Shown here one piece after another: positions 18,220-56,062 of a stretch of DNA of 64,000 nucleotides. A program made the translations under genes and the position numbers. Each line of letters begins with the position of its first letter. The first letter of the stretch is position 1. Source of the stretch: Maylandia zebra (taxonomy: Eukaryota > Chordata > Actinopteri > Cichliformes > Cichlidae); assembly GCF_041146795.1 (NCBI RefSeq), contig NC_135168.1, positions 40,602,870 to 40,666,869 on the forward strand, read 5' to 3'. The notes below the pieces were generated by a model. The model did not search any database and had not been told where the DNA came from. It saw only the letters and a list, made by a program, of their open reading frames with translations.

Positions 18220-18280
18220 GGTGTCACTGTTGACCACTAGAGCACACTACCACACTACTCTTCTTCTCTGAAGTCATGAC
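18220..18280 (+). promoter_or_regulatory. V1 promoter element (CGCT-box relative)
   Basis: CGGTGTCACTGTT (GGTGTCACT at 18220-18228) aligns with CGGTGTCGCTGTT of V2, with the CGCT core changed to CACT. A second CTCF-like core CCACTAGAGCAC follows at 18234, and AAGTCATGAC at 18271 is CRE/AP-1-like. It lies 256 bp upstream of the V1 ATG, the distance expected for the Pcdh conserved sequence element. Confidence 0.5.
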
Positions 18281-18475
18281 ACACCCATTTGTAAAGGCAA
18301 AGGACTGGTTTCTTAAATGGGCGCTTATGATTATTTACACACAGAACCTTAATTCATTCTTGTCTATTGTTTTTCTGGATTTTTTTTTTTGCAAAGATAC
18401 TCTGTGAAATCTTAAGAATCACAGACATAAAACGTCTTTTAGGATCTGGCTTATTTTTTTCCTGCAAAGGAAAGG

Positions 18476-20857
18476 ATGAGATTTTGCATTGCCGTCTTTG
18501 TCTTGTGTGCAACATGGCCAGCCGCTTTGTCGGTGACACGGTACTCCATACCCGAGGAGAAGGAAAGGGGATCTGTTGTGGCTAATCTGGCTGCAGATCT
18601 GGGACTTGAGCCAGGAGGTTTGGCGCAACGAGAGGTAAAACTTGATATTTTTTCCAACAAAAAATACCTAGATTTTAACAAAAAGACGGGCGAACTGTAC
18701 ATCGTAGAAAAAATGGACAGGGAATATCTTTGTCCGGCGAAACCCGCGTCCTGCTTTTTAAAGCTCGATGTGATCATAGAAAGCCCCTTACGTATCTTCA
18801 ACATCGAGCTTGGAATAACGGACATAAACGATAACGCTCCACATTTCCGACGGGACAGAGTAGAGCTCGACGTTTCAGAATCTGCAACGCCGGGCGAGAG
18901 GTTCTCCCTGCCCAACGGCGTGGATCCAGATGTTGGTATAAATACAATTAAAACGTACAAACTCAGTGTTAGCGAACACTTCACAATCGAAATTCAGACA
19001 GGTAGCGACGGAACTCAGTATGTAGACTTGGTGTTGACCAAATCGTTGGATAGAGAACAGACTGCTGTTCATAATTTAATATTAACTGCAGTGGATGGCG
19101 GTGTCCCGGTGCGCTCTGGCACTGCTAATATTATTGTAAGAGTACAGGACACAAACGATAATCCCCCACGGTTTGATAAGCAGACTTATACAATTAACAT
19201 GACGGAAAACACCCCAATAGGGACCTTAGTGATGAAGCTAAACGCCTCGGACCTTGACGAGGGTTTGAATTCAGAGATTGTGTACTCATTCACCCTTTAC
19301 ACGTCGGAGAAAACACAAGAGGTGTTTTCACTGAATCATAACACTGGAGAGATAACTGTGAAAGGAACTATAGACTATGAAGATATGAAATTCTATGAGA
19401 TGCACATAGAGGCCAGAGACAAAGGCACGCATCCCTTGCTTGGTCAGTGCAAAGTGGTCGTTAATGTGAAGGACATGAATGATAATTATCCGGAAATCAT
19501 CATACAGTCTGTTAAAAACACAGTGGAGGAGAACGTAGCAGTAGGAAGTGTTATTGCACTTGTAGATATAAGTGATAGAGACACGGGGGATAACGGAAAA
19601 GTAAGCTTGACTATACATCGACCCATGCCCTTTACAATTAACACATCTTCAGATCGACCCATGCATTACAAGCTCATTGTGTCCGAGCCTTTAGATCGCG
19701 AAACAGTACCTGAATATGACATTACTCTAATTGTAACAGACGCAGGGATGCCACCTTTATCTGATAATGAAACAATAACTGTCCATCTGCTCGATGTTAA
19801 TGACAACGCGCCACAGTTCCCCCAGTCATTTTATACTATACGTGTCATGGAGAATAACGCACCTGGGGCCTTGCTCAGCTCACTCACTGCCTTTGACCCC
19901 GACCTCCATGAAAACCAGTATCTAGTTTATTTCATAATAGAGAAGGAGATAGCCAACACATCCATGTCTATGCTGTTCTCCATCAATCCAGAGAACGGTA
20001 ATCTTTACGCACTCAAAACCTTTGATTATGAGATTGAGAAGGAGTTTCTGTTCCACATCGAGGCCAGAGACTCTGGCTCTCCTCCTCTCAGCAGTAACGT
20101 GACCGTCCACATCATTATTGTGGACCAGAACGACAATGCTCCAGTTATTGTGTCTCCGTGGCGTGCACAAGGCTCTGTGGTGGAGGAAAAGATCCCCAGA
20201 TCCACTGATAAAGGATCCCTGGTTGCCAAGGTGATAGCCTTAGACACAGACTCTGTGCACAACTCTCGGATCACCTACCAGTTTCTACAGGTGACTGACG
20301 CCACCTTGTTTAGTCTGGACCAATACAATGGAGAGATCCGGACTATGAGGATGTTCAGTTACAGAGATCCACGCCACCAGAGACTGGTTGTTGTTGCCAA
20401 GGACAACGGAGAGCCTGCTCTCTCTGCTACAGTCACCATCAAGCTGACCACAATGGAGACTGCTGTTAAAGCCTACTCTGACATGACTGAGGAGCCTCTG
20501 GAATATGACATCTTCTCAGACATCAACCTGTATTTGGTCATCGGTCTGGGCTCGGTGTCGTTTCTGCTGCTCATCACCATATTGGTCACCATCGTGATCA
20601 AGTGTCAGAAACCCAAGCCCAGCAAAGCAGCTCCTCCCTCCAGGAACAGTGTGATCAGTGAGAGGAACTCCACCATTGCAGACTCCACTCTGGTCTCCAA
20701 CGATGCCTACTGGTACAGTCTGTTTCTAGCAGAGACCAGGAAAGGAAAGCTGGTGGTTAGACAACCTCTGCCAAAGGGCTCCAGATACATTGTGTCCAGC
20801 ATACCGAGAGGGACAGGGCTGACAGACACTAGTGACTCAGCAGCTTCTACTCTGCAG
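18476..20857 (+). CDS. Protocadherin variable exon V1
   Basis: 794 codons from the ATG at 18476 to the phase-0 donor CTGCAG|GTGAGA. The signal peptide is about residues 1-19, followed by VTRYSIPEEKERGSVVANL and six cadherin repeats. EC1 carries C-x6-C. The membrane segment is about 685-708 and an 86-residue cytoplasmic part ends DSAASTLQ. V1 is the most divergent member: EC1 to EC4 are unlike the rest (for example EPGGLAQREVKLD, and an EC4 loop with HRPMPFTINTS). From about 19807 (FPQSFYTIRV) to the donor it is nearly identical to V2-V12. Reading past the donor stops after 12 codons, so an unspliced message would give a truncated tail. It should act as one alternative first exon in a choice cluster. 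The tail lacks the beta/gamma motif YSYEVCLT, so an alpha-like label is tentative. Confidence 0.92.
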
Positions 20858-21008
20858 GTGAGAGTTCAGTGTCGATATTTGTATTTATGTTCATGAGTTT
20901 TTATATTCATTATTCATTCATCATATACAGTAGACTCCTTCCACAATGTAAAAGTTCAGGAGTGATTTACTGTTATTTAAGCTCATTAATAGTATTATAG
21001 TATTTCTA

Positions 21009-21203
21009 AATATATATCTATATATATAAATATATCTATCTATCTCTCTCTCTCTCTCTCTATATATATATATATAAATATATCTATCTATCTATCTATC
21101 TATCTATCTATCTATCTATCTATCTATCTATCTATCTATCTATCTATCTATCTATCTATCTATCTATCTATCTATCTATCTATCTATCTATATATATATA
21201 TAT
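21009..21203. repeat. (TATC)n and (TA)n/(TC)n microsatellite
   Basis: A long TATC tetranucleotide array flanked by TA and TC runs lies between V1 and the V2 promoter. Confidence 0.97.
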
Positions 21204-21252
21204 TGAAATTGAAATTTATTAAAGAATGTTCGGAGAAACATTCAATATTACC

Positions 21253-21348
21253 GGTGTCGCTGTTCCGTTAGTAAAAGGTGGAACTACGAACGTAACCAGC
21301 ATTCACTGTGGAAGTCGGGACCCGACCAGAAAGCTCAGTGGTGCTGAA
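21253..21348 (+). promoter_or_regulatory. V2 promoter: CGCT box, CRE-like box, RE1-like element
   Basis: GGTGTCGCT at 21253-21261 is followed by GTTCCG, shared with V7. ACGTAA begins 37 bp later at 21290, and AGCTCAGTGGTGCTGAA lies at 21332-21348. The last matches the left half and centre of RE1 in reverse orientation (13 of 14 at TCCGTGGTGCTGAA). The CGCT box is 272 bp upstream of the start codon. Confidence 0.6.
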
Positions 21349-54310: not shown

Positions 54311-55025
54311 GTATGGGAAACGTTTACATTCAGCATTTATTTATACTGATGTACTTTGTCAATGTCCACCCCTCCGCTTACAAGTGATCAGTGTTGGACT
54401 GAATCATTAATTCAGCTTTGGAATTTGAATCCATCCCAGTCCAGTCAGTTTACTTAAATCTACCGACCTCTATTTTTTTTTTTTTTTTAAATATCTATAT
54501 TTGGTATTTGGGTCAATAAGCAAATCAGAGTTTCTCTCCATCATCATTAGTGTGGTCAAAGGAATAACTTTGTTAATCTGACTAGATATCTACTAAAGGA
54601 ATATTTATTGGGAAGAAAGAAAAATATTGTTCAACTGTACATTTTGTGTGTACAGTTTTTTTTTAAAGAATTACACCCAAAACATGTAACAAAGGAAGAT
54701 GAGAGATTAACAGTATACAAAGGTTGCCTAAAAAGAAAAATTAGACATGTTTTGAGGAAATTAAATGTGTCATAAATATGATATTTACATTTTGTTTAAA
54801 TACTTGAAATATTCTGACCATATAGCAACACACCTAATGGTGAAACCTTTCCACTATGATTTTTGGGAGGAAACTTCTACACAGTATAAATGCAGAACCA
54901 CAGAGACTTACAAATGAGCCTATGTGAGAACTGAGTTTTTAAGTAGGCTGTGCCAATAGAGGCAAGGTCCAAAACTCAGTAGAAACACTGCAAATAGAGT
55001 GCATAAAACCACAGACAGTAACATG

Positions 55026-55052
55026 CCCCCCCCCCCCCCCCCCAAAAAAAAA
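55026..55052 (+). repeat. Poly-C/poly-A run
   Basis: Eighteen C followed by nine A. A likely length-variable site. Confidence 0.95.
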
Positions 55053-55261
55053 GAAAAGATAAGAAAATATTACATAGTCAGTTCAAGCGTTCAAATAAAT
55101 ATGTTAATAATCGAGCATGCACAAACATTTAAGAACGAAAGCCTTCATATATACACGCACTGAAACTGTACGTAAACTACAAAAATACAGACATGCTTGG
55201 TGTGTTTGTTTAGTTTTGTTGACTGGTCTGATCACTAACTGGCACTTACTTTTCTGTACTT

Positions 55262-55341
55262 GGCTGAAATTATTCTTATTGTTATTGTTGTTATTGTTGT
55301 TATTATTATTATTATTATTATTATTATTATTATTATTATTA
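55262..55341. repeat. (TTA)n-rich microsatellite
   Basis: Imperfect TTG/TTA units become a pure TTA run. On the + strand it reads as a poly-Leu frame that is not a gene. Confidence 0.95.
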
Positions 55342-56018
55342 ATATTAATATCTTAACTCTTTCCATTGTCTCTTTGAGTGCACACTATATCGAGTAGCTT
55401 GCCTAAATTTTATGTGTAAAGTAGCAGGCAGGCATTGTGTACCTTGCCAATAGCGAGAGCAAACAGTCTTTAGGTGAGTGTGACAAAGACCCGGGTGATG
55501 CATACAGTTTATTAAATCGCAATAAAGTTTTATGGCACAAAACATGTAATATAATTTTAGCGCCGTTTCAAAAATAGATGTGTCTTGCAATTAAACCGGC
55601 CTTTATATCATTCCTTAGGCATTGAAAACAGACAGAAAAGACGGGAAAATCGGTAGCACATCATAACAGAGTAACTGCCATTCGCAATGCGCAGTGATAC
55701 ATTTGATGTCATTACTTGTCCAGTACTGTTTCATGCATCAGCACAGGAAACCTCGCACTCCGCCAGACAAACGGGATACTGTGTTACAAACTCGCTGTTT
55801 TCCTCATGATAATTGCGTAATAAAGAAAAAAGTGCATGAAGAAATGAAAAGATGCCGAAAACTGGGAAGTACTTCGTGTGCATTCACTAATTCACGTCCC
55901 AGTTCGCATCAGCAACTTCTTAAACGGGAATTGAGACGCCCTGATTCTGTTGTTATTTAATAAAAACAACAATTTTATTTTTATGTTTTTTTTTTTATTG
56001 AAAAAGTTGCGCAATTGT

Positions 56019-56062
56019 TTCCGTCGCTGTTTTGCAGAAAAACACACCCATTAGTGAGGTCA
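56019..56062 (+). promoter_or_regulatory. V12 promoter: CGCT box and CRE-like box
   Basis: TTCCGTCGCTGTT (CGCT at 56025-56028) and TGAGGTCA at 56055-56062, about 35 bp from the start of the CGCT element. No RE1-like element. It is about 224 bp from the ATG. Confidence 0.5.

What the first reader, a model, noticed from the sequence alone, without database searches (positions are those of the whole stretch)
18220..56062. Shared promoter grammar: CGCT/CTCF-like box plus CRE-like box at a fixed ~36 bp
Upstream of V2-V12 a box of the GGTGGCGCT type (variants GGTGTCGCT, AGAGGCGCT, CGCGTCGCT, GATGGCGCT, CCGTCGCT) lies about 224-283 bp before the ATG. At 35-39 bp downstream of its start comes a CRE-related box: TGACGTCA in V10 and V11, GACGTCAT in V6 and V8, ACGTCA in V4, and ACGTAA or similar elsewhere. 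The CGCT box corresponds to the known Pcdh conserved sequence element, which binds CTCF in mammals. The rigidly spaced CRE-like partner is a further layer that I do not recall as a defined element of this promoter class. The CTCF-like cores all point in the direction of transcription.
Basis: partly seen in the sequence, partly recalled or inferred. Interest (0 to 1): 0.72.

Follow-up and report, generated by a model that had tools for sequence, protein, structure and literature searches.

The report
Protocadherin promoters share two boxes
In this protocadherin gene array, apparently from a fish, almost every exon's promoter carries the known CTCF-type CGCT box and, about three DNA turns further on, a second short box with an ACGT core that resembles a CREB/ATF site; the second box looks real and constrained here, but whether other species have it, and what binds it, is untested.

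Summary
The window is a clustered-protocadherin array (13 large ORFs; two tested). Eleven of 12 array promoters carry a sense CGCT box 222-278 bp before the ATG, fitting the known CTCF-binding CSE. An ACGT core starts 31-32 bp after the CGCT in 9 of 11, against 3 of 158 other CGCTs in the window. In 9 non-redundant promoters it is the best of all 4-mers and offsets (7 of 9; 300 shuffles never exceeded 5). The only two exact TGACGTCA in 64 kb sit there. Limits: the promoters are paralogues of about 4-5 lineages, where support is weaker (P up to 0.00125 for ACGT; 9 of 500 shuffles match it when any 4-mer is allowed; 2 of 4 if V13 stands for its pair). V2, V10 and V13 lack ACGT, only part are CRE-like, and column identity between lineages is not raised. 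No vertebrate sequence was reached, so conservation is untested. Also seen: an A-rich box at +15..17 and an antisense NRSE/REST-like box in V3, V7, V8, V9 (weaker V4, V6). Most likely: a constrained bZIP-type box beside the CSE.

The parts
18220..18228 (+). V2 (first array promoter) degenerate CSE GGTGTCACT, no CpG; nearest CRE-like TGAAGTCA at 18269-18276 (+44)
21253..21261 (+). V3 CSE core GGTGTCGCT
21290..21293 (+). V3 ACGT core (GAACGTAA), +32 from CGCT
25030..25038 (+). V4 CSE core GGTGGCGCT
25067..25070 (+). V4 ACGT core (GAACGTAA), +32
27951..27959 (+). V5 CSE core GGTGGCGCT
27985..27992 (+). V5 TAACGTCA, ACGT at +31
31736..31744 (+). V6 CSE core GGTGGCGCT (block identical to V4)
31773..31776 (+). 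V6 ACGT core, +32
35401..35409 (+). V7 CSE core GGTGGCGCT
35436..35443 (+). V7 GGACGTCA, ACGT at +32
38342..38350 (+). V8 CSE core GGTGGCGCT
38379..38382 (+). V8 ACGT core (CAACGTAG), +32
42044..42052 (+). V9 CSE core GGTGGCGCT (CSE block 96% identical to V7)
42079..42086 (+). V9 GGACGTCA, ACGT at +32
45278..45286 (+). V10 CSE core AGAGGCGCT; no ACGT, only TGACATCT at 45316-45323 (+33)
48266..48274 (+). V11 CSE core CGCGTCGCT
48301..48312 (+). V11 CACGTG (ACGT at +31) overlapping exact TGACGTCA at 48305 (+34)
51672..51680 (+). V12 CSE core GATGGCGCT
51707..51714 (+). V12 exact TGACGTCA at +30 (ACGT +32)
56020..56028 (+). V13 CSE core TCCGTCGCT
56055..56062 (+). V13 TGAGGTCA at +30, no CpG
38430..38445 (-). 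V8 NRSE/RE1-like box, best match in the window to TCAGCACCnnGGACAG (3 of 14 mismatched)
35492..35504 (-). V7 NRSE left-half-like TCAGCACTACGGA; equivalents at V9 42136-42148 and V3 21335-21347, weaker at V4 25115-25135 and V6 31821-31841

Best explanation
Each array promoter of this type carries a composite module. First comes the CTCF-type CSE in the direction of transcription. A box with an ACGT core of bZIP type (CREB/ATF-like in about half the copies) follows about 32 bp, or three helical turns, downstream. Shown: the boxes, their orientation, their shared spacing, and that ACGT stays invariant in five diverged promoters of one clade. Inferred: CTCF/cohesin on the CSE brings the chosen promoter to an enhancer, and a bZIP factor on the same DNA face, perhaps close to the start site, recruits co-activator and polymerase. 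Both cores contain a CpG, so DNA methylation would switch both sites off together. That would make the pair one methylation-gated unit of promoter choice.
For: ACGT at +31/32 in 9 of 11 CGCT promoters versus 3 of 158 other CGCTs in the window at +30..33. Top of all 4-mers and offsets in 9 non-redundant promoters, 7 of 9, null maximum 5 in 300 shuffles. Both exact TGACGTCA of the 64 kb lie at the site. Within-clade alignment (5 of the 7 V3-V9 promoters): ACGT invariant where 47 of 338 columns are invariant. One representative per lineage: shuffle P 0 of 4000, 0.00125, 0.00075 and 0.001 for four choices of representatives. Spacing 2.95-3.05 turns at 10.5 bp per turn, V11's full CRE 3.43. CpG in the CSE core of 11 of 12 and an ACGT in the second box of 9 of 12; CpG observed/expected 1.06 in the promoters versus 0.56 in the window. 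Methylation of the CGCT-box CpG blocking CTCF is reported in PMC7811963 (passages).
Against: The hypothesis was drawn from the same sequence it is tested on. Promoters are duplicates; by lineage representatives the support is 4 of 5, 3 of 5, 3 of 4 or 2 of 4 depending on the choice, and with any 4-mer allowed 9 of 500 shuffles also reach 4 of 5. Ungapped identity between lineages at +30..+33 is not raised (P = 1.0). V2, V10 and V13 lack the ACGT, and V11's full CRE is 4 bp off. About half of the boxes are not CRE-like beyond ACGT. No binding, start-site, methylation or cross-species data.
Confidence: 0.55

Rival explanations
1. The ACGT box is inherited ancestry: it was present in the founder promoter and persists, with its spacing, because the array grew by duplication and gene conversion. 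It has no strong present function.
For: V3-V9 are one supported clade (95/95) and V12/V13 another (96/96); V4 = V6 and V7 ~ V9 over the CSE block. Between-lineage column identity is not raised at the box.
Against: Within the clade most other promoter columns have changed (47 of 338 invariant in 5 promoters) while ACGT has not. A CpG-bearing core would be expected to decay fast if methylated in the germ line (established knowledge). The same offset recurs in V11 and V12, outside the clade.
Confidence: 0.25
2. The box is a core-promoter feature (start-site or TATA-neighbour element) or a site for other ACGT-binding factors (E-box/USF, PAR-bZIP/ATF4 type), not a CREB partner of CTCF. This overlaps the best explanation in part, so the odds do not add to one.
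For: An A-rich, partly TATA-like box lies at +15..17 (A at +16 in 9 of 9 promoters; TAAA/AAAA second; at lineage level only P = 0.054). The ACGT lies about 15 bp after it. Contexts vary: CACGTG in V11, ACGTAA in V3/V4/V6, TGACGTCA in V12. Factor names for these contexts are recalled.
Against: Two exact and four one-mismatch CREs at the site (6 of 11 promoters) favour a CREB/ATF-like optimum. No start-site data exist here.
Confidence: 0.35
3. Chance plus selective reading: a four-base match found by eye.
For: The pattern was noticed in the same data; with 5 lineage representatives and any 4-mer, 9 of 500 shuffles reach the same count.
Against: Across 9 promoters no shuffle reached it; 9 of 11 versus 3 of 158.
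Confidence: 0.07

Closest known systems
Clustered protocadherin conserved sequence element (CSE, CGCT box; CTCF site)
   Same: CGCT core in 11 of 12 array promoters, 222-278 bp upstream of the ATG, orientation along transcription. V1, outside the array, has no GGTGGCGCT-type box within one mismatch; its only upstream CGCT, at -155, is in a CTCCCGCT context
   Different: Here followed by an A-rich box at +15..17 and an ACGT box at +31/32, not described as part of the CSE in the passages I could read
NRSE/RE1 (REST) elements in fugu and mammalian Pcdh clusters (Tan et al. 2010, seen only as cited in PMC3601302)
   Same: V3, V7, V8 and V9 have an antisense NRSE-like box, the four best left-half matches in the window
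   Different: Right half degenerate (best full site 3 of 14 mismatches); not among the window's best matches in V5 and V10-V13
CREB/ATF cAMP-response element (TGACGTCA; identity recalled)
   Same: Exact in V11 and V12, one mismatch in V5, V7, V9, V13
   Different: Only ACGT shared in V3, V4, V6, V8; two mismatches in V10
13-bp CSE-like motif of Xenopus tropicalis pcdh-gamma2 15-36 (PMC4978886 section 18)
   Same: A second promoter motif about 200 bp upstream of the ATG in a Pcdh array
   Different: Found there in promoters without the CSE; here the box accompanies the CSE. Its letters are only in a figure, so no comparison was possible

Membership tests
Pcdh CSE / CTCF site | CGCT box in each variable-exon promoter at a similar distance upstream of the ATG | tested here: met
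   11 of 12 array promoters, CGCT at -222 to -278; V2 has CACT
Pcdh CSE / CTCF site | Orientation along transcription | tested here: met
   11 of 11 on the + strand, as the ORFs
Pcdh CSE / CTCF site | CTCF/cohesin occupancy in neurons | not testable with these tools
   no ChIP data
CREB/ATF CRE | TGACGTCA or CGTCA/TGACG half-site at the box | tested here: inconclusive
   half-site with CpG in 5 of 12 promoters (V5, V7, V9, V11, V12); <=1 mismatch at +29..+34 in 6 of 11
CREB/ATF CRE | CREB binding or cAMP/activity response | not testable with these tools
   none
NRSE/RE1 | TCAGCACCnnGGACAG with at most 1-2 mismatches (as used in PMC3531662) | tested here: not met
   best site V8 has 3 of 14 mismatches; left half alone exact
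Composite CTCF-bZIP element | Spacing kept in orthologous promoters of other species | not tested
   no vertebrate sequence reached (genome search did not complete)

The most novel reading that the evidence does not exclude
A composite promoter code, perhaps teleost-specific: CTCF plus a bZIP site three helical turns downstream, each with a CpG in its core, forms a double methylation-sensitive switch, so that one demethylation event licenses both looping and transcription of a chosen protocadherin exon, possibly tying promoter choice to cAMP or activity signalling.
Probability: 0.2. Interest if true: 0.72.

Novelty: new variant of a known kind. Interest (0 to 1): 0.42.

Why it matters
How one protocadherin promoter is chosen per neuron is explained so far mainly by CTCF, cohesin and DNA methylation. 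A second constrained box at fixed distance would point to a missing class of activator and give a simple test: mutate ACGT, or change its spacing by half a turn, and watch promoter choice.

Tried and rejected
Between-lineage ungapped identity profile: no peak at the ACGT box (P = 1.0) and only P = 0.054 for the A-rich box; there V5 was counted as a lineage of its own, which the later tree does not support. Exact TGACGTCA alone gives no clustering statistic. Vertebrate relatives: viral contigs gave none; genome contigs gave only 7 bacterial loci with cadherin-like repeats, not used further; the phage, plasmid and E. coli collections were not searched. Constant-exon signatures that I recalled found nothing; an open frame with a weak Cadherin_tail match turned up later. 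Rfam: no match at gathering threshold. Long RE1 consensus of 19 scored positions: no specific hit, best 6 mismatches, many of them repeated exon sites; the 16-base form was used instead.

Literature: searches; no title or abstract start that I saw names a CRE or ACGT box in Pcdh promoters, but most listed papers were not opened. I read section 18 of PMC4978886 and found-term passages of PMC4978886, PMC7811963, PMC3601302, PMC8787164, PMC10368422, PMC13391046, PMC1852091, PMC2764143 and PMC3531662. Wu 2001, Noonan 2004, Golan-Mashiach 2012, Tan 2010 and Yin 2017 are known to me only from citations or recall. Rows dropped before counts: V6 and V9 (duplicates) and V2 (no CGCT) in the 9-promoter tests; V1 in all promoter counts.
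Full report
What the region is. The window holds 13 large + strand open frames. The two tested (V1 and V12) match solved protocadherin structures and Pfam Cadherin, Cadherin_2 and Cadherin_C_2. V2-V13 share the same variable cytoplasmic stretch near their ends, as expected of a clustered protocadherin array whose 3' halves are homogenised; V1 differs. A frame at 12486-12827 has a weak Pfam Cadherin_tail match (E 0.0048, under the cut-off). 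So V1 plausibly closes one cluster and V2-V13 open the next; this is inference.

The CGCT box. V3-V13 all have CGCT at -222 to -278 from the ATG, on the sense strand, in 6 of 11 as GGTGGCGCT. V2 has GGTGTCACT. V1 has one CGCT at -155 in a CTCCCGCT context and no GGTGGCGCT-type box. This agrees with the published description of the CSE and with its absence from some genes (PMC7811963, passages; PMC4978886, section 18).

The second box. Anchored on CGCT, an ACGT core starts at +32 in V3, V4, V6, V7, V8, V9 and V12, and at +31 in V5 and V11. V13 has TGAGGTCA at the same place. V10 has only TGACATCT at +33. V2 has TGAAGTCA with its T at +44, 14 bases further on than the usual +30. The 64 kb contain exactly two TGACGTCA, both at this place.

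Chance tests. CRE hits with up to one mismatch: 5 of 12 promoters at T-offset 30+-1, circular-shift null 0 of 5000. De novo: over all 4-mers and offsets in nine non-redundant promoters, ACGT at +31/32 is first (7 of 9) and AAAA at +14/15 second (6 of 9); 300 dinucleotide shuffles never passed 5. Control CGCTs: 3 of 158 (71 + 87 on the two strands) have ACGT at +30..33, against 9 of 11 CSEs, 7 of 9 non-redundant ones, and 3 of 4 or 2 of 4 lineage representatives (Fisher P from 5e-11 to 0.0045).

Relatedness. A tree of the N-terminal 345 residues groups V3-V9 (95/95) and V12 with V13 (96/96), with V10 next to V3-V9 (88/84). With one promoter per lineage the ACGT overlap stays unusual (4 of 5, P 0 of 4000; other choices 3 of 5 or 3 of 4, P 0.00075-0.00125), but if any 4-mer is allowed, 9 of 500 shuffles also reach 4 of 5. 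Lineage-weighted column identity shows no peak at the box. I put that down to the wobble of the offset and the differing half-sites, but it is a negative. On the other side, in five diverged promoters of the V3-V9 clade all four ACGT columns are invariant, while only 47 of 338 columns are. I read this as constraint on a short ACGT core, with moderate confidence.

Other boxes. An A-rich box at +15..17 (A at +16 in 9 of 9) may belong to the known CSE or be TATA-like; at lineage level it only reaches P = 0.054. In V3, V7, V8 and V9 an antisense NRSE/REST-like box starts at +77..+87; its left half gives the four best matches in the window, but the full site misses the usual criterion (best 3 of 14 mismatches). 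V4 and V6 carry a weaker copy. NRSEs in fugu Pcdh promoters are published (Tan et al. 2010, as cited in PMC3601302).

Mechanism. Known: CTCF on the CSE loops a promoter to an enhancer, and methylation of the CGCT CpG blocks it (PMC7811963). Inferred: a bZIP factor at the ACGT box, three turns away on the same face, supplies activation. Both cores hold a CpG (11 of 12 and 9 of 12), so methylation would gate both. No binding data exist here; an E-box, PAR-bZIP or start-site role is a serious rival.

Verdict. The first half is the known CSE. The second half is a credible, modest extension whose generality is untested.

Noticed in passing
14365-14457: Between V1's presumed constant exon and the array: CCACCAGAGGGCGCT at 14443 (+), the only site in the window with 0 mismatches to the recalled CTCF consensus, and about 50 bp before it an antisense NRSE-like pair of half-sites with widened spacing (14391 down to 14365). 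Position and make-up recall the mammalian HS5-1 enhancer (CTCF sites and a non-canonical NRSE), but this CTCF site points the same way as the promoters, not against them.
   Followed up: partly
21335-21348, 35492-35505, 38430-38446, 42136-42149: Antisense NRSE/REST-like box starting 77-87 bp downstream of the CSE in V3, V7, V8 and V9 (weaker in V4, V6).
   Followed up: yes
19088 and 46152, with weaker equivalents at +893..+905 in V3-V9: Forward CTCF-like matches inside the coding exon about 0.86-0.9 kb after the CSE (2 mismatches in V2 and V10, 4 in V3-V9), roughly like the exonic CTCF sites about 0.7 kb after the CSE in mammalian alpha genes.
   Followed up: no
12486-12827: Open frame resembling the last constant exon of a protocadherin cluster (Cadherin_tail, below cut-off).
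   Followed up: partly
21033-21203, 34621-34691, 35243-35279, 41471-41941, 55269-55351: Microsatellites (TATC, TTA, TG, AC/AT, ATT) between the variable exons; those before V3, V7 and V9 end less than 150 bp before the CSE (18000-58700 scanned).
   Followed up: no
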